Positions 30,494 to 56,223 of a DNA stretch of 64,000 bases are shown piece by piece; within the stretch, counting starts at the first letter, position 1; every line of letters starts with the position of its first letter. The stretch is from Methylomonas montana. GTDB lineage: Bacteria; Pseudomonadota; Gammaproteobacteria; Methylococcales; Methylomonadaceae. The position numbers and the translations under genes are program-made. The DNA lies in contig NZ_CP129884.1 in assembly GCF_030490285.1 (NCBI RefSeq), forward strand, positions 1,736,001 through 1,800,000. The letters run 5' to 3'. The notes under the pieces were generated by a model. It was given only the letters and a program-made list of their open reading frames with translations. It was not told the origin of the DNA and made no database searches.

Positions 30494-33400
30494 TTAACCG
30501 CATCCTGGTGTGCCGTTTTTGACATCGGACACGCTGCATTTGCCGAAGCCGACGACTTGCGTATCGAGGATGGCGACTTTTGCGGATTTTTTAGCGGATG
30601 TTTCAGAGTTATTGGAATCCTGGTCTGCGGCGGACACGTCGGCGGCCGTTTTCGCCGCCGCTGTTGCGGCGGCATCGCCGGCGGCCGTTGGACTGCCGAC
30701 CGGCGTCGGCGGGGGCGGTGCGGGATTCGCAATTTGGATATTATCGATGCCTCTCACCGGGCCGGGCAGGATAACTTTGCCGCCGCCGATACCGGCTTCG
30801 CCGGCATCGACATAGCCGTTTGGCGCCAGCAAATACACATTGCCGATCCGGTCGCTGTTATATCCGGACTGGGCGCGAATGCCACTGCCCGATACCGTGG
30901 CCGGAAATATCACTACCAGATTGCCGTTGGCATCCAGGCGGACTTTAGGGCGCGGCGTGGCAATCGCCGATTTGGCGCCGCGGCCGGCATCGATATTGCC
31001 TGCCGACGACCAAATCGTGATGTCGCCTGCATCCAGGGTAAATATGCGGGACTGATTGACCAGCAAATCGCCCTTGACCAGAATGTTAACGTTGCCTTCA
31101 CGCTGTGCCACCACGCCCAGTTCATTGGCGTTTTTCTGCCCGGTAAACGCCGAGGCCAGGCCGACGTTGATCATGCCGCCAGGCGCCAGCAGATCGATGT
31201 CGCCACCATATAGAGTCTGGATGCGGCTGAAGAATAGCTTAATGTCGCCGGCCGGACTATCCGGAAACAATCGGGCGATGGCATCATAGCCACGCCGGTA
31301 GGCGGCTGCCTTTGCCGAATCCGGCAAGGCCACGGCAGTCTCGGCGGTGGCTCGAATTTCCGTAAATAAAATATCCAGAGCGAGCGCCAGACGGCCGGCC
31401 GTCGTGGTTTGTCGGTTCAGTTCCGCCAAACGGTCGGCGTAGGCGCCGTTGCCGACGTAGAAATTCAGTAAATCTTCCAATGGCCGGGTATCGCGCTGCA
31501 AACGGTTACCGGCCAGCACGACGATGTCGGCGCCGGTTTGCGGTAAGGCCGAGTTCAGCAGCGGGCCGACCGTGGTAATCCCTTCGGAGCTACCCAGATC
31601 GATGTCGCGACCGGCCCAGACATTCAATAAACCGGGGCCGGCCAGTTGGATGCCGCCGGCCGAGCCCTGAACCGCGCCGGTGGTGGGATCTCGCAAGATC
31701 GGAAACACAACGTCGCGACCGACGCTGATGCTGCTGACGTCATCGGCATTGATGTTCTGGATCATCAGTCCCAGATTGAACAAATCCAGTCCGGCTGAGA
31801 TTTCGCTGGCCTTGGCGGCCGCCACCAAGGCATCGCCGATACCGACGATGCTGCCGTTGGCCGAGACGATGCGGTTGCGTCGGGTGTCGTAACGATGCAC
31901 CGGTTGAGCGGCATGCACGGTGGATTCGTCGCCGCCGAAAGGCGTGGTGTACAGATACTGGGTAGCTCCAAGCGCGCTAGTGGCTGGCTGCATGGCCGAT
32001 AGCAAGCGGGCCGGGTCGACATCCAGCTGATTGACGCGGGTGCCGCCGTTGTCGTTGCCTATATTGATGTCGTCAGCCGCCAGCAATTCCAGGCTGCCAT
32101 CGGCCGTCGGATAAAGCGTCATGGAATTGGCGATGCTCAGGCCGCCGCTCAGCGCCTGTGCCGTCAGATCGCCCGGATATAAAGTCAACAACGGATAATC
32201 GGTGCTTTTCAATACCGCGCGGCCCTTGGGCGACGCCTGGTCGAAGATTTTGTAAGACTGAGCAATCGGCTGCACGTCGTTATTCAGGATCGCGTCGCCG
32301 GCCAGCGTTTGCAAGCTGATGGCGCTGCCTTGGCTGTAACTGGTGAAATAAGAAGTTTTGTCCAGAAATTTGCTGGGTGCGACCGAAAAAGGATTCAGCA
32401 CCGTGCCGACTTCGATACCGTTGCCGGCCTGGACCTGGAATTGGGCATCGCCCAGCGCGAAAACCGGACCGGCGCTGTACTGGCTGCCGCCCTTGATCGC
32501 GCCGCCGGCCTGGATCTCGGCTTTGCCTTTGTCGACGTAAAATACCCCGCCAGCGATGTCGCCGCCAGCGCGCACCTCCAGATCGCCGCCGCCCAGACGT
32601 TGCCAGACGTTTTCGGTGATTGTGCCGTTGGCCGCTTGGCCGACCGGTTTGGCCGAGGTCGGCAGCATCACCGACAGATTTTGAATATCGTCGCCGGCCT
32701 TGATGCGGACACTACCGCCACCCAAGGCGCCCAGGTTTTCCCTAAAGCCGAATTTCAGGTTTTGCAGCTTGGCGTTGCTGCTGTTTTGCACGACCAGACC
32801 GTCGAACATAATGCCCCAAGCAGTGGCTCTATCCTTACTGGTGATACCGTCGCTGCTATCCCAGTTACCCGTGCGTTGCAGCCAGTCGGACATAAACTGC
32901 GGGCTGGCGGTGCCGACGATGTTACCGCCGGCATTGAGACTGATATCGCCGCCGTCGAACGGATAATCCACAAAAAAGGCGGCGGCGACCAATGCGTTGC
33001 TGAAACTGCCCCAGCGTTGGTCGGTGCTGGCATGGCCAGCCGTGTAAATGGTCGAAGTCGAATCGCTCAGTACGATATCGCCGGCCGCGGCAACATCGAT
33101 ATTGCCGGTACCGGTGCGGACGCTGGTGTTGGCGGCCACGGTGAGCGAGCCCGCGGCGGACGATTGCACGGCGAGCGGATCGGCGCTGCTTAGGTCGGCG
33201 CCGGCGACCAATTGGTAATTCCAAGACTGGCCGGTCTGCAACACCAGGGTGCGCAGCCAGTTGCCGCTGACGCCCAACAAACCGGCCAGCTGTTTAGAGT
33301 CGTACAAGGCAAAGCCGTCGCTGAGCGTTTGGCCAACCATCAAGTCGCCGACCGCTCGCAGGCTGAGTACGCCGACGCTGTCGTTATCAAAATGCCAGCT

Positions 33401-36400: not shown

Positions 36401-39400
36401 CGACAAATCGCCGCCGCCGTTCAGATTGACTACCGCACTGGCGGCCAGGTCGATGTCCGGCCCGGACAAGACGATGGATTTTTCCGGGCTACCGGTTTGG
36501 ATGTTGCTGTAGTTGCCCAGTGGATAGATCCAGTCCAGGCCGCCCTGGGTGCGGCCGAACGGAATCAGTAGGCCGTCGTCGTCGCTGACCGAGGTGATGC
36601 TGCCGCTTGCCAGTGTCAATGCCTTGCCGGCATTCAGTTCTATGCCGCCAAAGGGCGCCAGCAGTACGCCATGGCTGACGATGTTGGGGGCGTCGATCCG
36701 CAAATGTCCCGCCGCCGACAGCGGCGTCGCCCAGTCGGCATTCGCCGGCAGGATTTCGATCAGGCCATCCGGATTGAGGCTGGCATCCAGCGTCAGGCTG
36801 TAGCGGCTGAAGGTAGTCGGGTAGATTTGCCGGGCGCTCAGGCTTAAATCGCCCGCTAGCGACAGATTGCCGAGCAAGTCCGCTTCGCCGTTCGGGCGGA
36901 TGCCTGTCATACGGATGTCGCCGGTGCTATTTAGCCGGGTTTGCCCGAAGCCGGCGATTTTGCTGGCGCCGACTAGATCGATTAGCCGGGCGTCGACGCT
37001 GAGAACGGCGTCGGGATCTGTGGCGTATAGATCGCTGTGGGCGGCGCGGTTCCAGCTAGACCCCAGACTGAAGGTATTGCTGTGCAACTGCACAAGTCCG
37101 TCGCCGGAAATTAGCGGTGCGTCCAGTTGCAAATAATGGCTCAGCGTCAGATTGAGATTGCCGTCGAAGCGGATTTCGCCACGTTCGGGTTGAGTGGGAG
37201 TGTCCGAATATTGATCCGGCTCTATCATCGCCGCCGTCAGCGTCAACGAACCAAAGCCGCCTTGTTCGATCTGTTGGTTCGAAATATAAGCTTGACCGTT
37301 CAATGCGTTGGGGATGCCATGGGCGGCCATTAGCTCGACATCGGCCAGATTCGGCCAGTCGGAACCGATATGAATGACGCGGTTGCCGGTGGTGAAGATC
37401 TGATCTTCGGGTTCGCCGCGATGTTGGGCGTTAAGTGTCAGGTTCAGGCTGCCGCCCGACACGCTCCAACCTGGACCGGCGGCACTGCTGCCCAGGCCGG
37501 CTTTGGCGAGCAACTGGCCTTGCAGTACCATGCCTTCGGCGGCGGTCAGCGTAATCGCGCCGCCGGCGGACGCGAGGGTTTGCCGACTTAGCCCCTTGGC
37601 GTTGACAATATCTACGCTCGCTTGTCCGCCGGAAACGTCGATGCTGCTACCGGCTGCGGCCAGGATATAGCCGCGCTCGGCGCTCATCTCTATCGTGCCG
37701 CCGGCCAACACCTCGCCCAGCGCCAGGCCTTGAGAATTGGTTTTCCAAACCGTGGTGCCGGCGGCGTTCAGCCGGGCGTTACCGCCCAACACAATGGCCT
37801 GATTCGGGTTATAGCCTTTGTCCAGCGCGCTGGGCGGCGTAGTCAGTTGCAAGGCTATCGTGCCGGCCGGCGCGGTCAGCGAGCCGTCGATGCGGATGTT
37901 GGCGTCGGATGTTAACGAGAAAACAGCGCGGGGATCGCCGACGACGGCGACATGGTCGGCGATCGTGATCGCCCGTTCGGCCAGGTAGCCGCCGGCTATT
38001 GCGGCATTGTGTGCCAGATTCAGGCTTAGACCGACCGCCTGGCGCATGTCATCCGGCAATACCGTTAACGACACCAACTGGCTGAGATCGCTACCGCTGA
38101 CGGCCTGGGCTGCGGCGGATTTCAATTGCCAGTTGCTTTGCCGCAAGCGGATGGAGGTGCCGGCGGCGATGCTCAAATTGCCGGCGTTGGCGGTCAGGCG
38201 GTAGCTGCCGAATCCGCCGGACTGCAATAGCGCTGCAGGCAGATTGAGCGTGGATGGGTCGGTAGCTGTGCTAGTACCGATCTGGACGGTGTTGGCGGTC
38301 AGGCTCAGGGCGCCGCCATATTGCAAGGCATAGGAGGACAGCGATGCGCCGAGATCGAAACGGCTGGGCTCCAAGCCGGCGCTGATCAAACGAATGTCGC
38401 CGCCGTTACCGCCGGTAGCCTGGAGTTTGCCGTTCAGCGCGGCGCCGCCGTTGGCACTGATTTTCGCGCCGCTGTCCAGCAACAAATCACCCTGGGCTTG
38501 CAGCACGATATCGCCGCCGTCTATCGTCAAGGGTTTTAAGATTTGCGCCCTTTGGCTGTCGCTTAGGTCGTTGATCCAGCTGCCGCTGCTGTCGACGCTA
38601 CTTCCGGCCGTTAGATGAATTCGGCCGTTCAGGTCGCGGGTCGGGTCCAGTCCGCGTCGGGTTTTCAACTCAATGCTGCCGGCCGGCGCGGTGATTCGGC
38701 CTTGCACCTCTATTTCCCCGGCTTGCAGGTTGAGACTGCCAGCCGCAGCCAGGTTTAAGTGCGCGTCTTGCGGGAGCGTCAGTTTGCCGCCGCTAGTGAT
38801 GGCCAGGCGATTGACGCCTTGGGCGAATAAGGCATTACTCAAATAGATGGGTACAGCGGAGGAAATCGAATCGCCGCTGCCGGCCGTGAATACGATGTCT
38901 TGCTGAGCTTGGTTAGACCAGGCCGTGTCTATGCTCAACGTGCCGCCTTTGCTCATGGAATTGGCCGTACGCTGGTAGAGACTGTTGACGGTATTGGCGT
39001 TTAGGTTGCCGGACAAGTTCAGGTCGCGGGTACGGATATTCAAACCGCCGGCATTGCCGCCTTGGACATACTCGCTCTGGTAGTAGCTATTGCTAACGAT
39101 CTGCTGGTAAGTAAGATTGGGATCGGCCGAGGCCATATCGTAGAGCCGGCCGTGCGAAAGCAGTTTGGTCGTCGTCACTTTGCCGGCCAGATAATGTAGC
39201 GAGCCGCCGGACAGATCGATCTCGGCGCCGCGGTCGACCTGCACCAAGCCTTCGGAAGCCAGATTGACGGTGCCAGCGTCGATGTTGCGTTCTTCGATAC
39301 CGTGTTGAACTTTTTCCAGCGCACCGGAAATATCGGCCAGTTTGGTGCCGGTACGGGTATCCACCTTAACGGTTTTGCCGTGCAGGATGCCGGCTTTCTG

Positions 39401-40825
39401 AATCGGCGCATCGCGCAGTTCGTAGTTGCGTAGTTCCACGTCCACGATATTGGCGGACATTGGCATGGTTACGTTCTTGACGCCGGAAACGTCGATTTTA
39501 CTGCCGTTCTCCAGCAGGATGCGGCTGGCATTGTCGGCCGATGTGCCTTGCAGCGGCCGGCTTGGCGCGCTGCTGGCCCTGAGGTTGACGTTGCCGCCGT
39601 GGGCGACGATCCGCGCGCCGGCCTTCATTCGTATTTGACCGGCTTCCAAATCAATTTGCGATTTTGGTTGAACCTGGCCCTTGACGGCGCTGCCGGCGTC
39701 CAAGGTCACCGTGGTCAGGCTGCCCGATTCCAGCGTCACGCTGGCTTGAGTGCCCAAGCCGTCGTCGGCGGCGCTGGCTCTGGATGTGCTGACCGGTTTC
39801 AGCCGGTACCCGTCGCCGCTGGCTTCCAATTGCGCGCCTTCGCGGGCCAGCAGCCGGACGCTGCCGTTCAATGCCACCGAGGTGCTGGCCGAGACGATGC
39901 CTTGTTGCGACACCGCGAACCCCATCAGCGTGGTGTTGCCGCGCTCGGTCAAAACCTTGCCGACGTTTTTGACGTCGCCGCCGGTTTGTACTTCCACTAA
40001 CAAGCCGCGCAGATTGTCGTCGTCGGTCTCTTGCAAATACACCTTGTCGGTGGCTGCCGCCAGGATCACCTGACCGTCCGGCGCGCTGATCGTCCCCTGA
40101 TTTTCCACTTGTGGCGCGGCCATGATTATTCGGCCGCCGTTTGCGGCGGCGATGCGGGCGTCACGTTCCACCAATATCCGAATCTTTTCGCGATTGCCGT
40201 TGCCGGTGTTGCGGTACACCGTGCCGTCGCCGGCCAATGCGGCCACCGGCTCCTGGTTGTTGGCACTGGCATTGGCGTCCACGATTTTGCCGATGCCTTG
40301 CGCGAACACCGCGTCGTCAATCTTCAGATTGGTGGCTACCAGCGAATTGGTGTTGACCGAGGAGCCGTTGCCGAATACGAAACCGTTGGCGTTGACCAAA
40401 TACACCTGACCATTGGCGCTGAGGTTCCCGTAAATCTTGCTGGCATCGAGTTGATGGATGTTGTTCAGCGCCACCGACGAACTGGCGGGTTGCTCGAATT
40501 GCACGCTCTTGCCGGGGTCGATGTCAAATTTCTGCCAATCCAAAATGGTTTTATCGGTGGCTTGCCGGATAGTCAATTTTTGACCGTCGGCGCTGTAGCT
40601 GGCTGAGGCATGGCCAACATCGACACCGGGATGCAGTGCCGGAGCGGTTAGGTCGGGTATGGCCGTCCCGGCACTGGCGCCGGCGTTAATCGATACCGGT
40701 AGCCCGTTATCGGCCAAGGTATCGGTGGCGCCGGACATGGCAAATACGCCGCCGGTCAAGATGCGGCGTATGGATAGTCCGAGCAATTTTTTTGGGGCGA
40801 TAAACGGGCTGCGCTGTTTGTTCAT
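30494..40825 (-). CDS. Giant filamentous-haemagglutinin-like TpsA exoprotein
   Basis: A 3443-residue two-partner-secretion exoprotein. After a signal peptide (about residues 1-38, basic n-region MNKQRSPFIAPKK) comes the TPS domain (about 40-330) with the NPNG-like VNANGFVFG. The body is a long beta-helix of short G/N/D-rich repeats (IDVSGG, LTLAAGS, GDISLNAGG). Near the C terminus is a segment like DUF3739 (IFTLDAGDITIWSSAGNIDAGRG, PNGYVDAGEAGIGG), then a Pro/Ala-rich linker. The only cysteines, Cys3430 and Cys3442, lie in the last 14 residues, recalling the HMW1 adhesin anchor. The frame is open to 40939; the ATG at 40825 gives the better signal peptide. The likely transporter is the TpsB at 54610-56223. 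Confidence 0.92.
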   Translation of the reverse strand: MNKQRSPFIAPKKLLGLSIRRILTGGVFAMSGATDTLADNGLPVSINAGASAGTAIPDLTAPALHPGVDVGHASASYSADGQKLTIRQATDKTILDWQKFDIDPGKSVQFEQPASSSVALNNIHQLDASKIYGNLSANGQVYLVNANGFVFGNGSSVNTNSLVATNLKIDDAVFAQGIGKIVDANASANNQEPVAALAGDGTVYRNTGNGNREKIRILVERDARIAAANGGRIIMAAPQVENQGTISAPDGQVILAAATDKVYLQETDDDNLRGLLVEVQTGGDVKNVGKVLTERGNTTLMGFAVSQQGIVSASTSVALNGSVRLLAREGAQLEASGDGYRLKPVSTSRASAADDGLGTQASVTLESGSLTTVTLDAGSAVKGQVQPKSQIDLEAGQIRMKAGARIVAHGGNVNLRASSAPSRPLQGTSADNASRILLENGSKIDVSGVKNVTMPMSANIVDVELRNYELRDAPIQKAGILHGKTVKVDTRTGTKLADISGALEKVQHGIEERNIDAGTVNLASEGLVQVDRGAEIDLSGGSLHYLAGKVTTTKLLSHGRLYDMASADPNLTYQQIVSNSYYQSEYVQGGNAGGLNIRTRDLNLSGNLNANTVNSLYQRTANSMSKGGTLSIDTAWSNQAQQDIVFTAGSGDSISSAVPIYLSNALFAQGVNRLAITSGGKLTLPQDAHLNLAAAGSLNLQAGEIEVQGRITAPAGSIELKTRRGLDPTRDLNGRIHLTAGSSVDSSGSWINDLSDSQRAQILKPLTIDGGDIVLQAQGDLLLDSGAKISANGGAALNGKLQATGGNGGDIRLISAGLEPSRFDLGASLSSYALQYGGALSLTANTVQIGTSTATDPSTLNLPAALLQSGGFGSYRLTANAGNLSIAAGTSIRLRQSNWQLKSAAAQAVSGSDLSQLVSLTVLPDDMRQAVGLSLNLAHNAAIAGGYLAERAITIADHVAVVGDPRAVFSLTSDANIRIDGSLTAPAGTIALQLTTPPSALDKGYNPNQAIVLGGNARLNAAGTTVWKTNSQGLALGEVLAGGTIEMSAERGYILAAAGSSIDVSGGQASVDIVNAKGLSRQTLASAGGAITLTAAEGMVLQGQLLAKAGLGSSAAGPGWSVSGGSLNLTLNAQHRGEPEDQIFTTGNRVIHIGSDWPNLADVELMAAHGIPNALNGQAYISNQQIEQGGFGSLTLTAAMIEPDQYSDTPTQPERGEIRFDGNLNLTLSHYLQLDAPLISGDGLVQLHSNTFSLGSSWNRAAHSDLYATDPDAVLSVDARLIDLVGASKIAGFGQTRLNSTGDIRMTGIRPNGEADLLGNLSLAGDLSLSARQIYPTTFSRYSLTLDASLNPDGLIEILPANADWATPLSAAGHLRIDAPNIVSHGVLLAPFGGIELNAGKALTLASGSITSVSDDDGLLIPFGRTQGGLDWIYPLGNYSNIQTGSPEKSIVLSGPDIDLAASAVVNLNGGGDLSAFEFIAGPGGSADVLDTDSAFAILPAYQADYAAYDPLEFAKSGLTPGDSVYLGAAAGLAAGFYTLLPAHYALLPGAYLITPQTGTADMAAGTTTLRNDGATIVAGYRYTAGTSAGDSRWSGFAVESGTLARTRSEYQETTAASFFAEHSANLPQDAGNLSLLAGQSLQLAAQISATAVVGGQGGMLDIAANRLAVVNNRSAIQDTDTVVLLASELNRLSVDSLLLGGRRSRSNSHTQLTVGAQTVSIGADTYLRAPEILLAASDKVSMAGGAAIVAEGSLSRTDTDLEIVNADASSDGALLRVSAGAQADIQRAAEALTGLTGTLDIAVGATLSSAGSILLDASKDSLFSGNIDMSQGELALSSSRIALGDASAGGGLILSEATLNSLRADKLVLNSDGAIDIAGALNLQLKDLTLNASGVRGHGSAGQLAAISADRLTLTNRGNPPAASTADGSGLLNLTANTLILGAGDYAWSGFERVALTGLSAIVDSGTGTINADSDVTLTAPVWTATAGADTTLNLGTHNLTTLASGNAAPQDALGARLSINANRIDHGGRIELAAGIVKLNAAGDMRVSGGIDTSGRDVDLAGQHVYTGGGSIFLKSSAGELTLAAGSLLDVSGSHWGGDAGGLSLSAAAGNLTLAGDLLGKGYQGAVGGDFSLDANTASPADFSALNAYLYRGGFSGNLSIRHRSGDLTVAAGDTVKASSIALSVDSGKLTLLGELDAGGEQAGIIRLSAGDSVDVLSGAKLRAVSTGAGKTGGSAILTSLDADGDGNQGVTVAAGATLDVSGGQAGKGGSVEAVVNRIGSDDAAVSIADGSVHGAETMKVTAMAQYRDTPLGNAQIQQWRGETQTYLQAAAENSGLQGRLGGFQLQPGISILSSGDLTLDLSESANKLAWTQQTSSIWKTRLNDVAGAINALHQIGGNGVVHKLTEAASSSLTVDGTYYFDANPQSATFRTLFVRIYPNSGSASVKYNPTKINGSLISHNGWDLAFPDRQGQSWHFDNDSVGVLSLRAVGDLMVGQTLSDGFALYDSKQLAGLLGVSGNWLRTLVLQTGQSWNYQLVAGADLSSADPLAVQSSAAGSLTVAANTSVRTGTGNIDVAAAGDIVLSDSTSTIYTAGHASTDQRWGSFSNALVAAAFFVDYPFDGGDISLNAGGNIVGTASPQFMSDWLQRTGNWDSSDGITSKDRATAWGIMFDGLVVQNSSNAKLQNLKFGFRENLGALGGGSVRIKAGDDIQNLSVMLPTSAKPVGQAANGTITENVWQRLGGGDLEVRAGGDIAGGVFYVDKGKAEIQAGGAIKGGSQYSAGPVFALGDAQFQVQAGNGIEVGTVLNPFSVAPSKFLDKTSYFTSYSQGSAISLQTLAGDAILNNDVQPIAQSYKIFDQASPKGRAVLKSTDYPLLTLYPGDLTAQALSGGLSIANSMTLYPTADGSLELLAADDINIGNDNGGTRVNQLDVDPARLLSAMQPATSALGATQYLYTTPFGGDESTVHAAQPVHRYDTRRNRIVSANGSIVGIGDALVAAAKASEISAGLDLFNLGLMIQNINADDVSSISVGRDVVFPILRDPTTGAVQGSAGGIQLAGPGLLNVWAGRDIDLGSSEGITTVGPLLNSALPQTGADIVVLAGNRLQRDTRPLEDLLNFYVGNGAYADRLAELNRQTTTAGRLALALDILFTEIRATAETAVALPDSAKAAAYRRGYDAIARLFPDSPAGDIKLFFSRIQTLYGGDIDLLAPGGMINVGLASAFTGQKNANELGVVAQREGNVNILVKGDLLVNQSRIFTLDAGDITIWSSAGNIDAGRGAKSAIATPRPKVRLDANGNLVVIFPATVSGSGIRAQSGYNSDRIGNVYLLAPNGYVDAGEAGIGGGKVILPGPVRGIDNIQIANPAPPPPTPVGSPTAAGDAAATAAAKTAADVSAADQDSNNSETSAKKSAKVAILDTQVVGFGKCSVSDVKNGTPGCG

Positions 40826-41184
40826 CCTGTCTGACCGAAACGCTTTGATGTTTTTATATATTTGCTTGTTTATATCGAATATGCAACAGCCGATACGAGT
40901 CTCGAGCGAGAGATGCCGGAAAAAAAGCCCGTGAATCATTGTAAATCCAGCGAATACGCTGAATTAGTCGCGATAATTTCCTTATATGAAATAAGTTATT
41001 TGCCTAATTAGATTTGACCGAGTTCGCATTTTTAGAATACGTTATAGCCGTCAGGACATAACGAAGACCGATCACTCCTGACCGAGAGGGCTGTATTCGG
41101 TACGGATAGATTGATGCCGGCACGACTTTGCGGCCATGGGTAGGTAACGGGACTACGGTCTCATCATATTTGACGAGGTAATTT
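40826..41184. other. Divergent regulatory region between the TpsA gene and a VPxPA-CTERM gene
   Basis: 359 bases between two divergent starts, so it must hold the promoters of both. The TpsA-side 115 bases could be coding if translation began at 40939. The right side holds consecutive hairpins at 41050-41160, described separately. No clear promoter hexamers were assigned. Confidence 0.45.
41050..41160 (+). promoter_or_regulatory. Structured 5' leader of a VPxPA-CTERM gene
   Basis: Three successive small stems can form: GTCAGGA (41050-41056) with TCCTGAC (41076-41082), CCGA with TCGG (about 41082-41100), and GCCG (41116-41119) with CGGC (41131-41134), followed by GGGAC/GTCTC close to the ribosome site. 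It does not carry the motifs of the two GEMM-like elements in this window. Whether it is a regulatory RNA or chance is open. Confidence 0.3.
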
Positions 41185-48366: not shown

Positions 48367-50148
48367 ATGACGCACAATGCACTGAAGTGGGCCTTGAGCC
48401 TGTTTTTGTTACCTTCTCTATGCCTGGCTTGGTGGAACGACGACTGGTCGTCGCGCCGGCAACTGGCGGTGGACGCAGCGGCGACCGGCGCCGACATTCA
48501 GGAGACGCTGAGCGATGTGCCGATACTGGTGCGGCTACATGCCGGCAACTTCGGCTACTTCGTCGAACTGGCCGAGAACGGCCGCGATTTTCGATTTTTA
48601 AAAGACGACAAAACCCCGCTGGTGTACGACGTCGAGCAAGTCGACCTGTTGAGCGAGATCGGTCTGATCTGGGTGAAACTGCCGCAAGTGCGCGGCGGCG
48701 TGAGCAGCGACGACTTCTGGCTGTACTACGGCAACGCCAATGCACCGGATGGTTCCGACCCGAAAAACCTCTACGACGTGGCGCAAGGTTTGGTCTACCA
48801 CTTCAAGGACGGCGAAGCGCTGCCGCAGGACGCCACCGCCTACGCCAGCCACGCCGCCGACTCCAAAGCCACGATTCAGCCGGCCGGTTGGATAGGTGCT
48901 GCGGCTCAATTCACCGGCACCGGACCATTGTCGATTAATCCCGCGCCGCAGTTGGTCATGGCGCCCGCCAAAGGCTGGACTTTTTCTACCTGGCTGAAGC
49001 TTGATCAGCCGCAGAACGCCGCCAGCCTGCTGGAAGCCCGCGAAGGCGCGAATGGTCTGGAATTGAGCATTCAAGGCACGGTGTTGAGCGCTAAGTGGTT
49101 AGCTGGCGCGAGCACCGCCTCGGTCAACCTGACCCTGGGCCGCTGGCAACATATTGCTGTGACCGCCAAGAGCGACAAACTAGAACTGTATGTCGATGGC
49201 GTATTGGCCGGCAATGCCGCCATTACGTTAGCCGCCGTTAACCCGACGATCAGCATCGGCCGCAACCTGGTGGGCCTACTCGACGAAGTGCAAATCGCCG
49301 CCACCGCCCGCAGTGCCGATTGGGTCAAGTTTGGCTTTCGCAGCCAAAGCCCGGACTTTTCGGTGTTGAGCTACGGCCAGGACGAAGCCGTTAGCAGCGG
49401 CGATGCCGGCCACTTCATGGTCATCGTCCAAAACGTCACCGTCGACGGCTGGGTGGTGATAGGTCTGACCCTGATCATGCTGATCGTTGCCGTGATCGTC
49501 ATGGTCACCAAAACATTGGTCATTACTCGTGTCACGAAAGATAACAGAGCCTTCCTGGAAAAATATCGCCGGCTGGACTCGAACAAACTCGGCGAACTGG
49601 ATCAGGACGAAACCAGCGACGAACAGGAATTGGCCGACTCGGACTTGTTGACCGCGCTGGTCGGCAAACACGACCATTTCCAAAGCTCGACCTTGTATCA
49701 CCTGTACCACACGGCGATCCACGAGCTGAACAAGCTGCAAGGCGGTGCCGATCAGGTGGTGACCCGAGAAGCCTGGGATTACCTGCGCGTCAAGCTGGAT
49801 AGCCAGATCGTCAGCGAAAGCCAACGCCTGAACAGCAACATGGTGTTACTGACCATCGCCATCGCCGGAGGGCCTTTCCTGGGGCTGCTCGGCACGGTGG
49901 TCGGGGTGATGATTACCTTTGCGGCGATCGCCGCCAGCGGCGACGTCAATATTAACGCCATCGCTCCCGGTATCGCCGCCGCGTTGCTGGCTACCGTCGC
50001 CGGTCTGGCCGTGGCGATCCCAGCCTTGTTTGCCTACAACTACCTGTTGACTCGGATTAAGGACATCACCGCCAGTATGCGGATGTTCGCCGACGAGTTT
50101 TTGGCCGTGTTGTCGATGCGCGCCGCCCGACAACAGCGCAGAGCCTAA
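48367..50148 (+). CDS. DUF2341-LamG-ExbB fusion: proton channel with a periplasmic sensor/binding head
   Basis: A 593-residue protein. After a signal peptide (about 1-21) comes a DUF2341 domain (AWWNDDWSSRRQL to DDFWLYYGN, about 22-125), then a LamG/concanavalin-like domain (about 135-320; WTFSTWLKL, GRWQHIAVTAKSDKLELYVDGVLAG, GLLDEVQI). A membrane helix near 357-380 leads to a MotA/TolQ/ExbB domain (about 430-585; GGPFLGLLGTVVGVMITF, IAPGIAAALLATVAGLAVAIPALFAYN). It thus combines the proton channel of a TonB-like motor with a lectin-like periplasmic head. ExbD follows after three bases. A carbohydrate ligand is inference. Confidence 0.9.
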   Translation: MTHNALKWALSLFLLPSLCLAWWNDDWSSRRQLAVDAAATGADIQETLSDVPILVRLHAGNFGYFVELAENGRDFRFLKDDKTPLVYDVEQVDLLSEIGLIWVKLPQVRGGVSSDDFWLYYGNANAPDGSDPKNLYDVAQGLVYHFKDGEALPQDATAYASHAADSKATIQPAGWIGAAAQFTGTGPLSINPAPQLVMAPAKGWTFSTWLKLDQPQNAASLLEAREGANGLELSIQGTVLSAKWLAGASTASVNLTLGRWQHIAVTAKSDKLELYVDGVLAGNAAITLAAVNPTISIGRNLVGLLDEVQIAATARSADWVKFGFRSQSPDFSVLSYGQDEAVSSGDAGHFMVIVQNVTVDGWVVIGLTLIMLIVAVIVMVTKTLVITRVTKDNRAFLEKYRRLDSNKLGELDQDETSDEQELADSDLLTALVGKHDHFQSSTLYHLYHTAIHELNKLQGGADQVVTREAWDYLRVKLDSQIVSESQRLNSNMVLLTIAIAGGPFLGLLGTVVGVMITFAAIAASGDVNINAIAPGIAAALLATVAGLAVAIPALFAYNYLLTRIKDITASMRMFADEFLAVLSMRAARQQRRA

Positions 50149-50151
50149 GTC

Positions 50152-50556
50152 ATGAAAGTCGAGGAAGAAGGCAAAATCTACGACGACATCAACATCACAC
50201 CGATGCTGGACGTGGCCTATGTGCTGTTGCTGATTTTTATCATCATGACCACCGCCACCGTACAGGGCATCACCGTCAGTCTGCCCAAGGCCAGCAGCAC
50301 GCCGTCCTTGTCCAAACCCAAAACCAAGGCCATCTCGATTACCCCGGACGGCAGCATCTATCTGGATACCTACCCGGTGTCGCTCCAGGAACTGGAAACC
50401 CGCCTGGCCCAATACAAAGCCGCCACCCCGGACTTACCGGTGGTGGTGAAAGCCGATGCCAGCGTGCAGTACCAGAAAGTCATCGAAGTGTTGGACGTGG
50501 TGACTCGGTTGCAGATTAGTCAGTTGGGGTTGGTGACGCAGAAGTTGGTGAAGTGA
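50152..50556 (+). CDS. exbD: ExbD/TolR-family biopolymer transport protein
   Basis: A 134-residue partner of the preceding ExbB fusion. A short cytoplasmic stretch is followed by one membrane helix starting INITPMLDVAYVLLLIFII, with the essential proton-carrying Asp20, then a periplasmic domain (PVVVKADASVQYQKVIEVLDVV). Spacing of three bases from the ExbB fusion implies cotranslation. A dispersed repeat separates it from tonB. Confidence 0.94.
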   Translation: MKVEEEGKIYDDINITPMLDVAYVLLLIFIIMTTATVQGITVSLPKASSTPSLSKPKTKAISITPDGSIYLDTYPVSLQELETRLAQYKAATPDLPVVVKADASVQYQKVIEVLDVVTRLQISQLGLVTQKLVK

Positions 50557-51081
50557 GGATGTTTTTGATTGCTACAGGTGTTGGAAGAAGTGTCGCTGAC
50601 GCGAGGATGATTTTGAAGTCGGGTCTCGGCCCGACAGCCGAAATACTTTCGCTACGAAAACCATCCATGGTTTTCGCCCTTCGGGCCAGCCTTTGGCTGT
50701 TCAAATTCGTTCCTGACGAATTTGTGCGTGGCCAAAAGAAAGTATTCAAAGAAAAGGCCACCCGACATTCCGCCTTAATCCTGCGCGTCTCGCTTTTGGC
50801 GAGGGTTTTCGGAAGGGCCATCCCTGGCCCTCCGAAAACGCGCGGCATCCTTGCCGCGCCCCTGGCGGGCTGATCTTGCCAAAAGCTGCGATGCTCGGGG
50901 CGGAATAACGGGAAGCACCCTGTCCCGACACTTGAAAATATTGGGGATTTAGATGCGTACGGTGGGCACGATGAGTGCCCATGCGGCAGGCAGCCGAAGT
51001 GAAACAACAGCAGATATTGGGCTAGGACTGAATTGAGACCACGGGCGTTTGGGTCCCGTGACCACGAATGAACATAACGAG
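50557..51081. other. Intergenic region inside the ExbB-ExbD-TonB cluster
   Basis: 525 bases, 300 of them a dispersed repeat (50608-50912). No gene is credible; minus-strand frames run through the repeat. The repeat interrupts what is probably one operon, so tonB may need its own promoter in 50930-51081, where none could be assigned. Confidence 0.5.
50608..50912 (-). repeat. Dispersed intergenic repeat, copy 2
   Basis: Reverse-oriented copy of the element at 23614-23843, with the same ordered blocks (for example CCTTCCGAAAACCCTCGCC on the minus strand). It carries an extra inner block of about 70 bases, itself palindromic (AAATTCGTTCCTGACGAATTT). Both copies end near GTCGG(G/T)(C/T)CGAGA. Confidence 0.85.
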
Positions 51082-51753
51082 ATGAAAAACAAATATGCCT
51101 GGCTGCGCCGATTGCCCTTGTTATTGGGGATTGGCTTGGGCCTCTTGATAGCGCTGGGAGTGTGGTGGTTGACGGAAAAGTTCGAGAAACCGCCGCAAAC
51201 CAAGAAAGTGGCGCAACGGATCACGATGATCCAGCCGCCGCCGCTGCCGCCACCACCGCCCGAGCAAAAGCCGCCGCCGGAAGAAGTGAAAGAGGAAAAG
51301 ATCGAAGAACCGGAGCCCGAGCCCGAACCGGAACCCGCGCCGGAGCAGGACCAGGCGCCGCCCGCGGAAGAGCTTGGGCTGGATGCCGACGGCGCAGCCG
51401 GCAGCGACGGCTTTGGTCTGGCGGCGCGCAAGGGCGGTCGATCGATATTAGGCGGCGGTGGCGGCAACGCCATTCTCTGGTACGGCGGCCAAATTCAGCG
51501 CCAGGTGGAGAACGGTTTGCAAAGTCTGCTGGCCGACAGCGCCGCGGGCAAGGCCGGTTACAGCGTCATTGTCGATGTCTGGATAGGCGCCGACGGCCGT
51601 GTCGACCGCAGCGAATTATCGTCCGGCAGCGGTAAGGCCGATGTCGATCAGGCCTTGCGCGCCGCGCTGCTAAGGCTAACAGCTAGCGTTGGCCGTCCGC
51701 CGCCGGAGAACATGCCGCAGCCGATTCGGATTCGGCTCATCTCAAGGGTGTAG
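51082..51753 (+). CDS. tonB: TonB-family energy transducer
   Basis: A 223-residue protein with an N-terminal membrane helix (LLLGIGLGLLIALGVWWL), a PPPLPPPPPEQK and Glu-Pro-rich periplasmic spacer (about 50-95), and a C-terminal TonB domain (GYSVIVDVWIGADGRVDRSEL). It transmits the proton motive force from ExbB/ExbD to an outer-membrane partner. The ATG at 51082 is preferred over TTG/GTG codons upstream. No TonB-dependent receptor is encoded nearby, so the partner may be the porin or the TpsB of the same cluster. Confidence 0.9.
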   Translation: MKNKYAWLRRLPLLLGIGLGLLIALGVWWLTEKFEKPPQTKKVAQRITMIQPPPLPPPPPEQKPPPEEVKEEKIEEPEPEPEPEPAPEQDQAPPAEELGLDADGAAGSDGFGLAARKGGRSILGGGGGNAILWYGGQIQRQVENGLQSLLADSAAGKAGYSVIVDVWIGADGRVDRSELSSGSGKADVDQALRAALLRLTASVGRPPPENMPQPIRIRLISRV

Positions 51754-51832
51754 GGGCTTCCTGGTTCCATGTGAGTATTGCCATGACAAACACTCCGGAT
51801 TTTTAAGACTATTGATTAAGCGATAAACCACA

Positions 51833-53734
51833 ATGAATACCGCAACGAAAAACCTGGTCCTGCTGCTGACCGGCAGCCTGGCTGTCACGACCGGCGCGGC
51901 GCAAGCCGCCGACGAGATAATCCCGGTCAAAAAATCCACCTTGATCAATCTGGTCGATTTGTTGGTGCAACGCGGCGTGATCAACAAAGACGAAGGGAAT
52001 GGTCTGGTTAGCGCCGCCGAGCGGGAAGCCGCGGAAGCAGCCAGAACCGCGCAAGCCAGCGCGGCTCGCGGCAATGGCGGTAAAGCCGCGCCGGTCAGTG
52101 AGTTGTCCTCTGTCAATACCCCGGCGGGCGATGCTGCCGTCAATGCCGAGTGGGGCGGCGAGCCGGCCAGCGGCAAAACCAAGGCCGGTAAGATCAAGCA
52201 TGTCGGCTATGTGCCGGAGTTCGTCAAAAAGGAAATTCGCGACCAGGTCCGTGCCGAGTTGAAAGCCGAGGTGTTGCAAGACGTCAAACAGGACGCCAAA
52301 ACCGAAGGTTGGGGTATCCCCGGCGCCTTGCCGGAGTGGGTGGCGGCGATTCATCCCAGTTTCGATATGCGTGTGCGTTTTGCCGACGATTTCTACGCCA
52401 AGGATAACGAAGGCGGTGTCGATAATGTCGGCATCGATGCCGACGGCAATTTTTTCGGCCCCTACAACTGGCTTTCGATCAACCGGGCCGGCAATACCCC
52501 GCAAGGCGGCTTGAACCGGCAGGTGGCGTTAAACCCGAACGAAGCGATCCTGAATAATCAAAAAGACCGTTTGCGACTGCGGGAACGCTTTCGTCTGGGC
52601 TTTGAAGCCAATCTGGCCGAGGGTTTGAAGGCCGGCATTCGTTTCGCCACCAGCAATATCAACAACCCGGTGTCCAACGATCAGACCCTGGGCAATACCG
52701 GCCAGTCTTACCAGTTTGCGATCGACCGTTCTTATCTGCAATACGATTTCCTGGACGAGCGAAAAACCAACTGGTTCAGTCTGTACGCCGGGCGGATTAT
52801 CAATCCCTTCGTCTCCACCGACGTGGTTTTCGACCCCGATCTGAGTTTCGAAGGGGTGGCCGGCAGTGTCCGCCTGCCGTTCAACCGGGGCAGTAATCAA
52901 TTGGCCGGCTATCACGCGCCTAATCCGACCGCGCGTTTCGGCATCAATCAGGGGCAACAAACCCCCGACAGCCTGTTCCTGACCTTGGGTGTATTTCCGT
53001 TGCAGGACATCGACGTCTCGGTCAACGATAAATGGCTGTATGCCGGACAGCTCGGCGTCGACTGGTTGCTGTTCGACGATTCGCGGTTCAATGTCGCCGC
53101 GTCGTACTACGAATTCCAAAACGTCAACGCCCGCCCTAATCCGATCGGCAGCCATGCTTACGACTGGACCGCGCCGCAGTTCGTGCAGAAGGGCAATTCG
53201 ATGGTGGCGATCACCGATGTCAACACCTTGAACGGCGTCTGCGACGATACGGTTGGCTGTTTGTTCGGCCTAGCCTCGGAGTTCAAAGTCTTCAATGCCA
53301 CGGCAATGCTCGATTACGCCGGTTTCGCGCCGGCCCATGTGTTGCTGACCGCCGATTACGCCAAGAACTTGGGCTTCGACAGACAACGGATTGCCGCCGA
53401 GTTTCAGAACGGCATCGTTAACTACACCGATTCCGATCCCCGCACCACGGCTTATCAAATACGGGTCGATATCGGCCGGCCGGAGGTCCGGCGTTGGGCC
53501 GATTGGAGCGTCAATCTGGCCTATCGCTACGTGCAGCGCGATGCGGTGCTGGATGCCTTCACCGACTCGATCTTTCATTTGGGCGGTACCAACGCCAAGG
53601 GTTGGGTGGCTGGCGTGCAATACGGCTTGGCGCGCAATACCTGGCTGAACCTGCGTTGGTTAAGCTCCGATAGCATCGACGGTCCCAAATACAGTATCGA
53701 CACCTTGAATGTCGATCTGAATGCCAGGTTTTAG
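51833..53734 (+). CDS. Putative outer-membrane porin of the ExbB-TonB-TpsB cluster
   Basis: A 633-residue protein. Signal peptide (about 1-25, ending AQA), an alpha-helical N-terminal region with a charged coiled stretch (KKEIRDQVRAELKAEVLQDVKQDAKTE, about 125-155), then from about 175 amphipathic beta strands typical of a 'putative porin' family, ending in the aromatic C-terminal residue Phe (LNVDLNARF) needed for Bam assembly. The next gene starts ten bases later. The solute is unknown. Confidence 0.85.
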   Translation: MNTATKNLVLLLTGSLAVTTGAAQAADEIIPVKKSTLINLVDLLVQRGVINKDEGNGLVSAAEREAAEAARTAQASAARGNGGKAAPVSELSSVNTPAGDAAVNAEWGGEPASGKTKAGKIKHVGYVPEFVKKEIRDQVRAELKAEVLQDVKQDAKTEGWGIPGALPEWVAAIHPSFDMRVRFADDFYAKDNEGGVDNVGIDADGNFFGPYNWLSINRAGNTPQGGLNRQVALNPNEAILNNQKDRLRLRERFRLGFEANLAEGLKAGIRFATSNINNPVSNDQTLGNTGQSYQFAIDRSYLQYDFLDERKTNWFSLYAGRIINPFVSTDVVFDPDLSFEGVAGSVRLPFNRGSNQLAGYHAPNPTARFGINQGQQTPDSLFLTLGVFPLQDIDVSVNDKWLYAGQLGVDWLLFDDSRFNVAASYYEFQNVNARPNPIGSHAYDWTAPQFVQKGNSMVAITDVNTLNGVCDDTVGCLFGLASEFKVFNATAMLDYAGFAPAHVLLTADYAKNLGFDRQRIAAEFQNGIVNYTDSDPRTTAYQIRVDIGRPEVRRWADWSVNLAYRYVQRDAVLDAFTDSIFHLGGTNAKGWVAGVQYGLARNTWLNLRWLSSDSIDGPKYSIDTLNVDLNARF

Positions 53735-53743
53735 GAGGCGGCG

Positions 53744-54613
53744 ATGTTTAAACGAGTACCTTCCATGCCGATCTGTTTATCCTGTCTGATACTGGCGGCG
53801 TTGCTGGCGGGGGTGGAAAACAGCCGGGCCGAAGCCAAGGCGCCTGGCGGCGAGGCGATCAAGAAAGCGCAAGGCATCATCCGCCAACTGAGCCAGGAGA
53901 AAAGCATGCTGGAAGCCGAAAAAGCCGTCTGGCTGACGGAAAAAGCCACATTGGACGCCAAAGTCAAAAGTCTGGAAGCGGCGGTCGCCCGCTTGCAACG
54001 CTTACAGGCCGAAGTGGAACGCTATAAATCCGGCTTGGAAGCGGTCCGCGGCAATCTGGAAACGCAACTGGGCCAACAGCGCCAGCGCGAGCAGGCTTTG
54101 CTGCAAAAGCATAACGAGGTGGTGAGTAAGGCTCGCGACAGTAGCGACGACAACAATCTATTGGTGCAGGCCGTCAAGGAGCGCGAGCAATGGATCGCGC
54201 AATGCGGAGCGCTAAATCAAAAGCTGCGCAACGCCAATCTGGAGATCGTCAATCAATATAAGGAAAAAGGCTTGTGGCAGCAGTTAGCCGAGTTGGAGCC
54301 TTTAACCGGCATCGGCCAAGTGCAAACCGAGACGGCGGCGGAAGACTATCGCTATCGCTTGCAACAACTCAAGATTACGCCGTTCCAGGCTGGCACGGCC
54401 GGTGTGCAGGCGATTTCTCCGGCGAGCGACGGGGCCGAAGAGCCGGATCAGTCCGTGCCCGCCGTCGACGTGATTGCCGGTAAGCAGCCGCCGGAACAGG
54501 GTGGGTTGACGTCGGATAGCAGCGAGTCAGTGATGGCCGAGGAATCGGTCGAAACTGCTGTTGAGGCGGCTAGTCGTCGCCGTACCGCGCCCGGTGCCGG
54601 GACGCCGCGATGA
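53744..54613 (+). CDS. Periplasmic coiled-coil protein of the cluster
   Basis: A 289-residue protein with a signal peptide (about 1-28) and a long coiled coil (about 35-170; heptads in IIRQLSQEKSMLEAEKAVW, KVKSLEAAVARLQRLQAEVE). The C-terminal 90 residues are acidic and disordered. I do not recognise a named family; it is reminiscent of the DUF3450-type helpers found with TonB2-like systems, but the resemblance is only in shape. It lies between the porin and TpsB and overlaps the latter by four bases, so it is probably a periplasmic connector. Confidence 0.75.
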   Translation: MFKRVPSMPICLSCLILAALLAGVENSRAEAKAPGGEAIKKAQGIIRQLSQEKSMLEAEKAVWLTEKATLDAKVKSLEAAVARLQRLQAEVERYKSGLEAVRGNLETQLGQQRQREQALLQKHNEVVSKARDSSDDNNLLVQAVKEREQWIAQCGALNQKLRNANLEIVNQYKEKGLWQQLAELEPLTGIGQVQTETAAEDYRYRLQQLKITPFQAGTAGVQAISPASDGAEEPDQSVPAVDVIAGKQPPEQGGLTSDSSESVMAEESVETAVEAASRRRTAPGAGTPR

Positions 54614-56223
54614 CGCGCAATGCTTTAACGGCTGCGATCGGCTTGATTCTGCACGGTGTTGTCGTTCAAGCGGCCGAACCGCCAGCGCAATCGGCTGACA
54701 TTGCCGAGCAAAGGGCTCGCGAGCAGCAGCCGCGTTTCGATGTGCTGGATTACCAGATCGAAGGCAACAGCGTGCTGGATGACGAAGCGCTGGAGCGGGC
54801 CGTTTATCCGCATTTAGGGCCGGACAAAACCGTCGAGGACGTGGAAAAAGCCCGCGTTTCTTTGGAAGAAGCCTACCGCAATGCCGGCTATCCAACCGTG
54901 GTAGTGGCAATTCCCGAACAAGATGTCGACGGCGGCGCGGTGCGCTTGAGCGTGGTGGAAGGCACCATCGAGACCTTGCATGTCAGCGGTTCGCGCTATT
55001 ATGCGCTGGGCAAGATCCGCGACGGTGTGCCGGCCCTGGCGGAGGGCCTGGTGCCGCATATGCCCAAAGTGCAGGAGCAGATGAATACGTTGGCCCAGCA
55101 GTCGGCCGACCGCAATGTCACGCCGATTTTTCGGGCCGGATCGACGCCAGGCAGAATGGAAGTGGAGCTGAAAGTCAAGGACGAATTGCCGCTGCACGGC
55201 AATCTCGAAATGAACAGCCGTAATTCCGAAAATACCAGTTATACCCGTTTATTGGGCTCGGTCCGCTACGATAACTTGTGGCAGCGTTTTCATAGCGTAT
55301 CGCTGCAATACCAGGTGTCGCCGGAGCTTAGCGACGAAGTCAGCGTCTGGTCTGGCACCTATGTGTTGCCGACCGGTTGGGCCGATACCCGCCTGGCTCT
55401 ATACGGTATCGGCATCAGCTCCAATACCCAACTCGGCGTCAGCGTCGGCGGCCTGTCGGTGGTCGGCGCCGGTTCGATCTACGGTGCTAGGCTGGTCAAA
55501 CCTTTGGCCGCTTCGTCGGATAACATTCTGCATAGTCTGAGTTTGGGCTTCGATTACAAAAGCTTCGACCAACAGATCGCCAGCTTCACTGAAAATGCGC
55601 CGATCAGCTATGCCTCGTTCATGACCGGTTATGACGGCAGCCGGCGCAACGAGACCAGCGTGACGTCGCTGAGCTTGGCGGCTCACTTTTCGATTCGCGG
55701 TTTGGGTAACGACGCGCAACAGTTTGCCAACAAGCGTCTCGATGCCGAACCGAATTTTCTCTATCTGACCGGCGATCTCAAGCATCAGCAGCGCTTGCCA
55801 TGGGATTTCCGGCTGTTGACCAGGGCAGGGGGGCAGGCCAGCATGTCATCCTTGATCAGCAACGAGCAGTTCTCGGCGGGCGGGCCGCTCAGCGTGCGCG
55901 GTTATCATCAAACCCAGCTGCTCGGTGACCACGGCGTCAACCTGTCGGTCGAATTGCAATCGCCGCATCTGCTGCCGGGGAAGTGGGAAGACAGCCAGAA
56001 CCTGCGGTTGTTGAGCTTTTTTGATTGGGCCAATATCTGGACCAACAATCCCATTGCCCCCACCCCTGCCACGGCGCACCTGGCCTCCGCCGGCATCGGC
56101 TTGCGTACGCAATGGTTCAAGCATTTATTGGCCGAACTTGACTGGAGTTATCCGTTTTACCGGCAAAGTACGATCGATCAAGGTCAGCAACGTGTGGATT
56201 TTAGAATGGTGTATGAATTTTGA
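54610..56223 (+). CDS. TpsB transporter (ShlB/FhaC/HecB family)
   Basis: A 537-residue outer-membrane protein that exports a TpsA partner. Signal peptide (about 1-22), POTRA domains (about 38-190; YQIEGNSVLDDEALERAVYP, VRLSVVEGTIETLHVSG), and a 16-strand barrel with the loop-6 motif SVRGYHQTQ near 425 and a C-terminal Phe (FRMVYEF). It is the only TpsB in the window; the 3443-residue TpsA 14 kb to the left is its likely substrate. Being last in an ExbB-ExbD-TonB cluster is unusual, since TPS export normally needs no energy transducer. Confidence 0.92.
   Translation: MTRNALTAAIGLILHGVVVQAAEPPAQSADIAEQRAREQQPRFDVLDYQIEGNSVLDDEALERAVYPHLGPDKTVEDVEKARVSLEEAYRNAGYPTVVVAIPEQDVDGGAVRLSVVEGTIETLHVSGSRYYALGKIRDGVPALAEGLVPHMPKVQEQMNTLAQQSADRNVTPIFRAGSTPGRMEVELKVKDELPLHGNLEMNSRNSENTSYTRLLGSVRYDNLWQRFHSVSLQYQVSPELSDEVSVWSGTYVLPTGWADTRLALYGIGISSNTQLGVSVGGLSVVGAGSIYGARLVKPLAASSDNILHSLSLGFDYKSFDQQIASFTENAPISYASFMTGYDGSRRNETSVTSLSLAAHFSIRGLGNDAQQFANKRLDAEPNFLYLTGDLKHQQRLPWDFRLLTRAGGQASMSSLISNEQFSAGGPLSVRGYHQTQLLGDHGVNLSVELQSPHLLPGKWEDSQNLRLLSFFDWANIWTNNPIAPTPATAHLASAGIGLRTQWFKHLLAELDWSYPFYRQSTIDQGQQRVDFRMVYEF

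What the first reader, a model, noticed from the sequence alone, without database searches (positions are those of the whole stretch)
48367..56223. Candidate undescribed system: lectin-headed ExbB motor, ExbD, TonB, porin, coiled coil and a TpsB transporter in one cluster
Seen: an ExbB whose periplasmic N terminus is a DUF2341 plus LamG module, followed by ExbD, TonB, a porin-like protein, a periplasmic coiled-coil protein overlapping a TpsB gene by four bases. Known: ExbB/ExbD/TonB energise outer-membrane receptors, while two-partner secretion is thought to need no energy transducer. Inference: the motor may be gated by a glycan or surface protein bound by the LamG head and may power or open the TpsB/porin, or retrieve material from the TpsA filament.
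Basis: partly seen in the sequence, partly recalled or inferred. Interest (0 to 1): 0.85.

Follow-up and report, generated by a model that had tools for sequence, protein, structure and literature searches.

The report
Motor-linked giant-protein secretion gene cluster
A bacterium, probably a methane-eater, carries a complete copy of a widespread but uncharacterised gene set in which a very large protein of the secreted surface type and its exporter travel with their own proton-driven motor and a dedicated outer-membrane pore, although such exporters are thought to need no motor.

Summary
48367-56223 encodes a DUF2341-LamG-MotA/ExbB fusion (ExbB*), ExbD, TonB, a Porin_5 barrel, a coiled-coil protein (CC) and TpsB; a 3481-aa TpsA lies 7.4 kb upstream. 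The gene set is not new: by content it is the PUMA3/Pdt cluster of Pseudomonas aeruginosa (PA0690-PA0701), whose Ton genes are called uncharacterised in print. New, as far as my literature searches reach, is how tight the link is. In 274 class genomes ExbB*, DUF3739-type TpsA and full-length Porin_5 mark one set of 19 genomes, with three misses, all in draft assemblies. In a second draw 12 of 12 new DUF3739 genomes have both partners; 16 tested negatives have neither. Of 80 other TpsB loci one has operon-like motor genes. Motor residues are invariant. The head is periplasmic by its place in the chain and most conserved in DUF2341, not LamG, so a surface-sensing lectin is unlikely. Porin_5 models as a 16-strand barrel without a plug domain but with periplasmic helices, closest to the attachment porin OmpM1. 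Most likely: a trans-envelope motor, acting through Porin_5/CC, that serves export, anchoring or release of giant TpsA. That TonB acts here at all is untested.

The parts
48367..50148 (+). ExbB*: signal peptide (about 1-20), DUF2341 (71-151), LamG/ConA-like domain (196-320), then TolQ/ExbB-like motor body (MotA_ExbB 463-572)
   Evidence: AlphaFold2 mean pLDDT 87.5; Thr510 and Thr543 in 93 of 93 aligned
50152..50556 (+). ExbD/TolR-like partner of the motor; membrane Asp20
   Evidence: Asp20 in 91 of 91 aligned
50590..50913 (.). copy of a genome-dispersed repeat between exbD and tonB (not part of the system)
   Evidence: 63 matches in the own genome, the query itself and partial copies included
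51082..51753 (+). TonB: N-terminal hydrophobic helix, proline-rich span, TonB_2 C-terminal domain (the ORF as listed opens at 51049)
51833..53734 (+). Porin_5: N-terminal helices (34-158), then a 16-strand barrel; no plug domain
   Evidence: Pfam E 7.5e-173; AlphaFold2 mean pLDDT 81.6; best PDB match OmpM1
53744..54613 (+). coiled-coil protein with N-terminal signal-like stretch (CC), conserved C-terminal module and nearly invariant Cys154
   Evidence: 44 sequences
54610..56223 (+). TpsB exporter (POTRA_2 + ShlB)
30494..40939 (-). giant TpsA, 3481 aa: TPS domain 113-336, DUF3739 3305-3403; likely cargo of the system

Best explanation
This is a motor-linked two-partner secretion module of the Pdt/PUMA3 type. 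Shown: TpsB, giant DUF3739 TpsA, ExbB*, ExbD, TonB, Porin_5 and CC form one conserved gene set; the proton-channel residues are intact; the ExbB* head precedes the first membrane helix. Inferred: TpsB exports TpsA by the usual folding-driven route. ExbB* (a pentamer, as in known ExbB), ExbD and TonB form a proton-driven trans-envelope arm whose outer-membrane partner is Porin_5, whose helical extension, with CC, makes the bridge. The arm does work on TpsA at the outer membrane: it drives its last stretch (the conserved DUF3739 end) out, anchors it, or releases it. The DUF2341-LamG ring steadies or gates the motor in the periplasm, perhaps on peptidoglycan or on polysaccharide in transit.
For: Co-occurrence: in 274 class genomes ExbB* 17, DUF3739 over cut-off 18, full-length Porin_5 19, all within one set of 19 (Fisher p about 8e-23 for ExbB* vs DUF3739, not corrected for relatedness). 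Second draw: ExbB* and Porin_5 in 12 of 12 new DUF3739 genomes and in 0 of 16 tested negatives. Full set in 55 of 63 loci with both flanks, five genes collinear in all 55; TpsA within 3 kb upstream on the same strand in 67 of 85. Other TpsB loci: operon-like motor genes in 1 of 80. ExbB* of these clusters form one group of 73 rows, SH-aLRT 98. In the second draw ExbB* and Porin_5 counts agree in 12 of 12 genomes, while TpsA outnumbers both in 3 (3:1:1, 3:1:1, 2:1:1), which fits one machine with several cargos. Porin_5 fold nearest OmpM1. In PAO1 one promoter transcribes phdA, pdtB, exbB2D2, tonB4 and PA0696-PA0701 (PMC4971064, passage).
Against: No experiment shows that the motor affects TpsA. 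[quoted passage not shown] No TonB contact site is known; I made no systematic search for a TonB box. Porin_5 also fits an uptake pore. A Methylomagnum plasmid has ExbB*-ExbD-TonB-CC with neither Porin_5 nor TPS in 27 kb, so motor and CC can occur without the porin. The own genome has another TPS-Ton cluster with plain ExbB and no Porin_5. Copy numbers do not always match in the class draw: G136, G150 and G119 have an extra ExbB*, G200 two Porin_5 and no ExbB* found. OmpM1's SLH domain is not found in Porin_5.
Confidence: 0.45

Rival explanations
1. Uptake: TpsA is a long surface catcher of a nutrient or polymer; Porin_5, energised or gated by the Ton motor, brings the catch or its fragments into the periplasm, as the TPS pair HxuBA with the TonB-dependent HxuC does for haem.
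For: HxuABC couples a TPS pair to a TonB-dependent transporter (PMC5422565, passages). Pdt production in P. aeruginosa is under PhoBR and PUMA3 control on phosphate starvation. Porin_5 is a barrel. A Methylomagnum plasmid has ExbB*-ExbD-TonB-CC within 10 kb of PhoX and another alkaline phosphatase.
Against: Porin_5 has no plug domain and is no TonB-dependent receptor by Pfam. The phosphate link is weak in my loci: PstS in 3. No ligand-binding domain was found in TpsA by Pfam.
Confidence: 0.27
2. The motor acts directly on TpsB or on TpsA in its pore and supplies energy for secretion; Porin_5 and CC are accessories.
For: In the window TpsB follows CC in the same run of genes, overlapping it by 4 bases. 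A second, plain-ExbB cluster in the own genome is tpsA-tpsB-tonB-exbB-exbD without Porin_5.
Against: Type V secretion is held to need no energy source (PMC5422565). TpsB is seen in the locus in only 15 of 75 loci with 4.5 kb or more downstream, though next to TpsA in 14 of 16 fetched TpsA stretches.
Confidence: 0.13
3. A Tol-Pal-like envelope tether: the TolQ/R-like motor and Porin_5 brace or constrict the outer membrane where giant TpsA filaments pull on it; no transport.
For: Body nearest TolQ/TolR by sequence and close to TolQ and ExbB by fold; Porin_5 nearest the outer-membrane attachment porin OmpM1.
Against: TonB here is proline-rich like TonB, not helical like TolA (TolA recalled). No peptidoglycan-binding domain was seen in Porin_5 or CC by Pfam.
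Confidence: 0.1
4. Co-regulation only: the genes share a regulon but do not work together.
For: In PAO1 the cluster sits in a larger sigma-VreI regulon with a type II secretion system (PMC7035377, passages).
Against: Near-perfect co-occurrence over many families and one group of ExbB*.
Confidence: 0.05

Closest known systems
PUMA3/Pdt cluster of Pseudomonas aeruginosa PAO1 (pdtA-phdA-pdtB-exbB2-exbD2-tonB4-PA0696-PA0697-...-PA0701)
   Same: TpsA, TpsB, ExbB, ExbD, TonB, putative porin and further genes in one regulon. A Klebsiella quasipneumoniae plasmid has FHA-ShlB-ExbB*-ExbD-TonB-porin-CC-YbjN-PPIase-hypothetical-LysR, the PAO1 order but for phdA, with the DUF2341-LamG head.
   Different: In the window TpsB follows CC, TpsA is divergent and 7.4 kb away, and no YbjN or PPIase gene was seen among the window ORFs scanned. 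The PAO1 sequence was not read; that PA0693 has the head is inferred from gene order.
HxuCBA of Haemophilus influenzae
   Same: TPS pair with a TonB-linked outer-membrane protein
   Different: HxuC is a TonB-dependent transporter; the window has a porin without a plug domain and its own motor genes
TolQRA-Pal
   Same: motor body and ExbD score best against TolQ/TolR
   Different: below the TolQ/TolR cut-offs; proline-rich TonB; N-terminal head
OmpM1 of Veillonella parvula
   Same: porin barrel fold (Foldseek E 1.1e-14, TMt 0.75)
   Different: 13% identity; no SLH domain found in Porin_5
MotA/ExbB homologues with N-terminal DUF2341 ('generic ion transporters')
   Same: DUF2341 appendage noted in PMC12505986 (passages)
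   Different: no TPS link in the passages seen

Membership tests
Two-partner secretion (type Vb) | TpsA with N-terminal TPS domain | tested here: met
   PF05860 E 2.4e-21, 30494-40939
Two-partner secretion (type Vb) | TpsB with POTRA and ShlB-type barrel | tested here: met
Two-partner secretion (type Vb) | TpsB exports that TpsA without an energy source | not testable with these tools
   needs secretion assays
Pdt/PUMA3-type cluster | TpsA, TpsB, ExbB, ExbD, TonB and a PA0696-type porin together | tested here: met
   window content; PAO1 content from papers
Pdt/PUMA3-type cluster | control by a VreAIR-type cell-surface signalling system | not tested
   no such gene among the window ORFs scanned, but not all ORFs were scanned; annotated beside a Methylosinus copy
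Pdt/PUMA3-type cluster | sequence homology to PA0693 itself | not tested
   PAO1 DNA was not fetched; same gene order in a Klebsiella plasmid
Ton motor | ExbB Thr pair and ExbD membrane Asp | tested here: met
   93 of 93 and 91 of 91 aligned; the equivalence to E. coli Thr148/Thr181/Asp25 is recalled
Ton motor | TonB with TonB C-terminal domain | tested here: met
   PF13103 36.5 bits, cut-off 22
ExbB, TolQ (NCBIfam equivalogs) | score over the family cut-off | tested here: not met
   exbB 71.7 of 206.2 needed, tolQ 120.9 of 221
TonB-dependent transporter | plug domain and 22-strand barrel | tested here: not met
   Pfam Porin_5 only; 16 strands and N-terminal helices in the model
OmpM attachment porin | N-terminal SLH domain (recalled) | tested here: not met
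   no SLH match by Pfam

The most novel reading that the evidence does not exclude
Proton-motor-driven type V secretion: a whole TPS subfamily (DUF3739 TpsA) uses a dedicated ExbB*-ExbD-TonB arm, working through Porin_5 and CC, to complete, anchor or release a surface protein of some 3,300 to 5,100 residues, against the rule that type V export uses no cellular energy source.
Probability: 0.35. Interest if true: 0.87.

Novelty: new variant of a known kind. Interest (0 to 1): 0.62.

Why it matters
Type V export is the textbook case of secretion without an energy source. In the genomes drawn here one TPS subfamily is, assembly gaps apart, never found without its own proton motor and pore. The cluster itself is seen in Gammaproteobacteria (beta included), an alphaproteobacterial plasmid, Desulfuromonadales, Nitrospirota and a conjugative Klebsiella plasmid. 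That makes the question 'can two-partner secretion be energised, and for which step?' testable with a few gene deletions, suggests a role to test for the uncharacterised exbB2-exbD2-tonB4 and PA0696 genes of P. aeruginosa, and offers a context for DUF3739, Porin_5 and DUF2341 motor heads.

Tried and rejected
Phosphate neighbourhood: a neighbour cluster first looked like PstS in 11 loci; checked with one PstS query it is 3, and its window member is a GGDEF protein. The claim was dropped.

Constant TpsA length: 16 complete class-sample TpsA have mean 3485, sd 69, against 1855, sd 515 for 19 complete control TpsA, but open frames in the phylum draw run from 3295 to 5122. The constancy is a feature of the first draw, not of the family.

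Mirror-tree test: Spearman 0.30-0.57 between all part pairs in 56 loci; it does not tell partners apart.

TpsB control: the 80 were taken from the best-scoring rows of a longer, capped list, not at random; 11 of the 80 stretches are under 12 kb, and windows of about 8.5 kb each side do not reach past a giant TpsA, so the two Fisher tests on this control are not used. 20 of the 80 were extended beyond TpsA; one more (G137) had ExbB/ExbD, about 7 kb off. Final: a motor gene somewhere nearby in 7 of 80, operon-like in 1 (L197: TonB, ExbD and two ExbB on TpsB's strand, 1.6 kb away). The own genome's other two TpsB loci are not among the 80: L163 has the plain Ton set, L164 has none.

XrtA/PEP-CTERM polysaccharide genes lie near 17 of 64 loci with 8.5 kb or more downstream and 0 of 80 controls, but 6 of the 17 are Methylomonas-type and the controls are other genomes; kept as a lead only.

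'ExbB* copies without TPS': on recount L056 has a short TPS-domain ORF on the other strand and L136 has Porin_5 and CC 8 kb upstream, so the claim is limited to the missing adjacent TpsA-Porin_5-CC set. The Methylomagnum plasmid, first taken as bare ExbB*-ExbD-TonB, also has CC.

Clostridial neurotoxin binding domains top the fold list of ExbB*: a generic match of the beta domains, not a functional hint.

Full report
Observation. The fusion protein has a signal peptide, DUF2341, a LamG/ConA-like domain, then a motor body. TonB probably starts at 51082. The likely cargo, a 3481-aa TpsA with TPS and DUF3739 domains, lies 7.4 kb upstream on the other strand. The nearest named relatives are Methylomonas (ExbB* 85% identical to M. 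fluvii), so the host is probably a Methylomonas-like methanotroph (inference). The window's genome is one 4.63 Mb contig.

Two copies. The same genome has a second complete set near 2.944-2.963 Mb: TpsB, TpsA (3616 aa), ExbB*, ExbD, TonB, Porin_5, CC in line.

Co-occurrence. I counted ExbB* as a match covering head and body (query about 6-20 to 580-593, also when split in two rows). In 274 class genomes, G000 included, 17 qualify. DUF3739 is over its cut-off in 18: 16 of those 17, plus G101, whose ExbB* match is a piece at a contig end, and G200, 64% complete, where no ExbB* was found. The one ExbB* genome without DUF3739, G104, has its cluster on an 8.6 kb contig that begins 0.4 kb before ExbB*. 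Full-length Porin_5 (466 bits or more) is in exactly these 19; 18 other genomes have only partial matches of 118.5 bits or less. A phylum draw of 398 genomes had 14 with DUF3739, 12 of them new; all 12 have ExbB* (in G543 cut at a contig end) and Porin_5. Of the 384 negatives I tested 16, picked from the 20 that the tool listed, all of the window's class and 5 of them already in the first draw; none has either.

Gene order. ExbD and TonB are present in 75 of 75 loci with 4.5 kb or more downstream, Porin_5 in 71, CC in 69; TpsA in 69 of 74 with 8 kb or more upstream; the full set in 55 of 63 with both flanks, with ExbB*-ExbD-TonB-Porin_5-CC collinear in all 55. Of the 8 exceptions, L040 and L046 have their missing parts 18-27 kb away; L041, L049, L056 and L136 are ExbB* copies without the adjacent set; in L123 and L138 no CC was detected. 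TpsB is next to TpsA in 14 of 16 fetched TpsA stretches; in G010 it is 3 kb off and in G036 13.7 kb off.

Control. Of 80 TpsB loci outside these clusters, motor genes lay nearby in 7 and in operon-like order in 1 (limits in Tried and rejected). The own genome has one more: tpsA (1153 aa)-tpsB-tonB-exbB-exbD with plain ExbB and no Porin_5. So in these samples two-partner systems mostly have no motor beside them, the DUF3739 type has one wherever the assembly allows a view, and a second kind of TPS-Ton pairing exists.

Tree. Of 77 ExbB*, 73 form one group (SH-aLRT 98), with L041, L049, L056 and L136 outside. TPS or Porin_5 is seen in the locus of 70 of the 73; the other 3 have under 4 kb of flank on either side. 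The method was quick, the outgroup branch very long; the root is unsure.

Structure. The ExbB* model (pLDDT 87.5) has beta domains before the first membrane helix; the body matches E. coli TolQ/ExbB (TMt 0.72-0.77 in the rows shown). The head is therefore periplasmic and, at this size, too short to reach the surface (inference). Porin_5 (pLDDT 81.6; strand count mine from the listed elements) is a 16-strand barrel with helices at 34-158 and a low-confidence stretch at 80-121; its best match in the PDB is OmpM1, an outer-membrane attachment porin. No solved sequence matches it below E 0.1. CC has only coiled-coil relatives among the best 60 of 327 listed.

Known counterparts. [quoted passage not shown] PMC2729926 noted in R. 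palustris and Janthinobacterium four copies of the PUMA3 genes, three followed by tpsA and one by tpsB with exbBD and PA0696 homologues. PMC4971064: one promoter for phdA to PA0701. PMC5422565: no energy source powers type V; HxuABC. PMC12505986: DUF2341 on MotA homologues. Not found in print, in the library held: DUF3739 in 0 papers; DUF2341 with ExbB in 2, neither on TPS in what I saw (one by passages, one listing only); DUF2341 with TonB in 1, the same; TPS with ExbB terms in 9 and 17, where by the listings only the PUMA3 papers seemed to join TPS to exbBD genes; PA0692-PA0696 in 3. A subscription paper of 2014 on PdtA that I recall is not held.

Plasmid relatives. ExbB* on a K. quasipneumoniae conjugative plasmid has DUF2341, LamG and MotA_ExbB in a cluster ordered as in PAO1 but for phdA. 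A Methylosinus plasmid has an STN-domain protein, a sigma factor and a FecR-domain protein upstream, the parts of a PUMA3-like system. A Cupriavidus plasmid has type II secretion genes close by. All five plasmid ExbB* have the head by profile.

Mechanism. Steps shown: gene set, order, co-occurrence, intact motor residues, head before the first membrane helix. Steps inferred: assembly into one machine; TonB acting on Porin_5; work done on TpsA. Motor and Porin_5 counts agree in all 12 second-draw genomes, while one motor can accompany two or three TpsA (G543, G461, G638). That fits one machine serving several cargos better than one motor per filament, and speaks somewhat for Porin_5 as TonB's target; the Methylomagnum plasmid, with motor and CC but no Porin_5, speaks against it. 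I put export or display at 0.45, uptake at 0.27, direct drive of TpsB at 0.13, a mere tether at 0.1. The recount changed details, not these odds.

Verdict. The gene set is a further member of the Pdt/PUMA3 type; I rate it a new variant of two-partner secretion because the obligate motor link is not stated in the papers found.

Noticed in passing
window 50590-50913: A repeat of about 325 bases, mosaic, with 63 matches in the own genome (query and partial copies included), sits between exbD and tonB; Methylomonas sp. SURF-1 (L066) has a gap of the same size there, not checked for the repeat.
   Followed up: partly
L163 6631-14142 (own genome, about 3.447-3.454 Mb): A second kind of TPS-Ton cluster, tpsA (1153 aa)-tpsB-tonB-exbB-exbD, without head or Porin_5, beside a nuclease/phosphatase-domain protein and a 5'-nucleotidase.
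   Followed up: partly
L039, L046, L057, L081, L094, L095, L103, L107, L108, L109, L110, L113, L115, L119, L124, L131, L134: XrtA/PEP-CTERM-type polysaccharide genes (chain length, tyrosine kinase or export) lie near 17 of 64 clusters and near none of 80 control TpsB loci.
   Followed up: partly
L041, L049, L056, L136 and L158 (plasmid NZ_AP019784.1): ExbB*-ExbD-TonB without the adjacent TpsA-Porin_5 pair; L056 is beside a DsbC-like gene, type II secretion genes and a short TPS-domain ORF, L158 keeps CC and lies near PhoX. The motor may have another partner there.
   Followed up: partly
L159 (plasmid NZ_CP084804.1): The cluster rides on a conjugative Klebsiella quasipneumoniae plasmid with predicted arsenic resistance genes.
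   Followed up: no
window 42068-43693: 541-aa protein without Pfam match; relatives near ExbB* in 8 other loci by BLAST clustering.
   Followed up: no
L052, L097, L111, L119, L120, L125, L128, L135: A gene between Porin_5 and CC in 8 loci; its L119 member has ankyrin repeats by Pfam, the others were grouped by BLAST only.
   Followed up: partly
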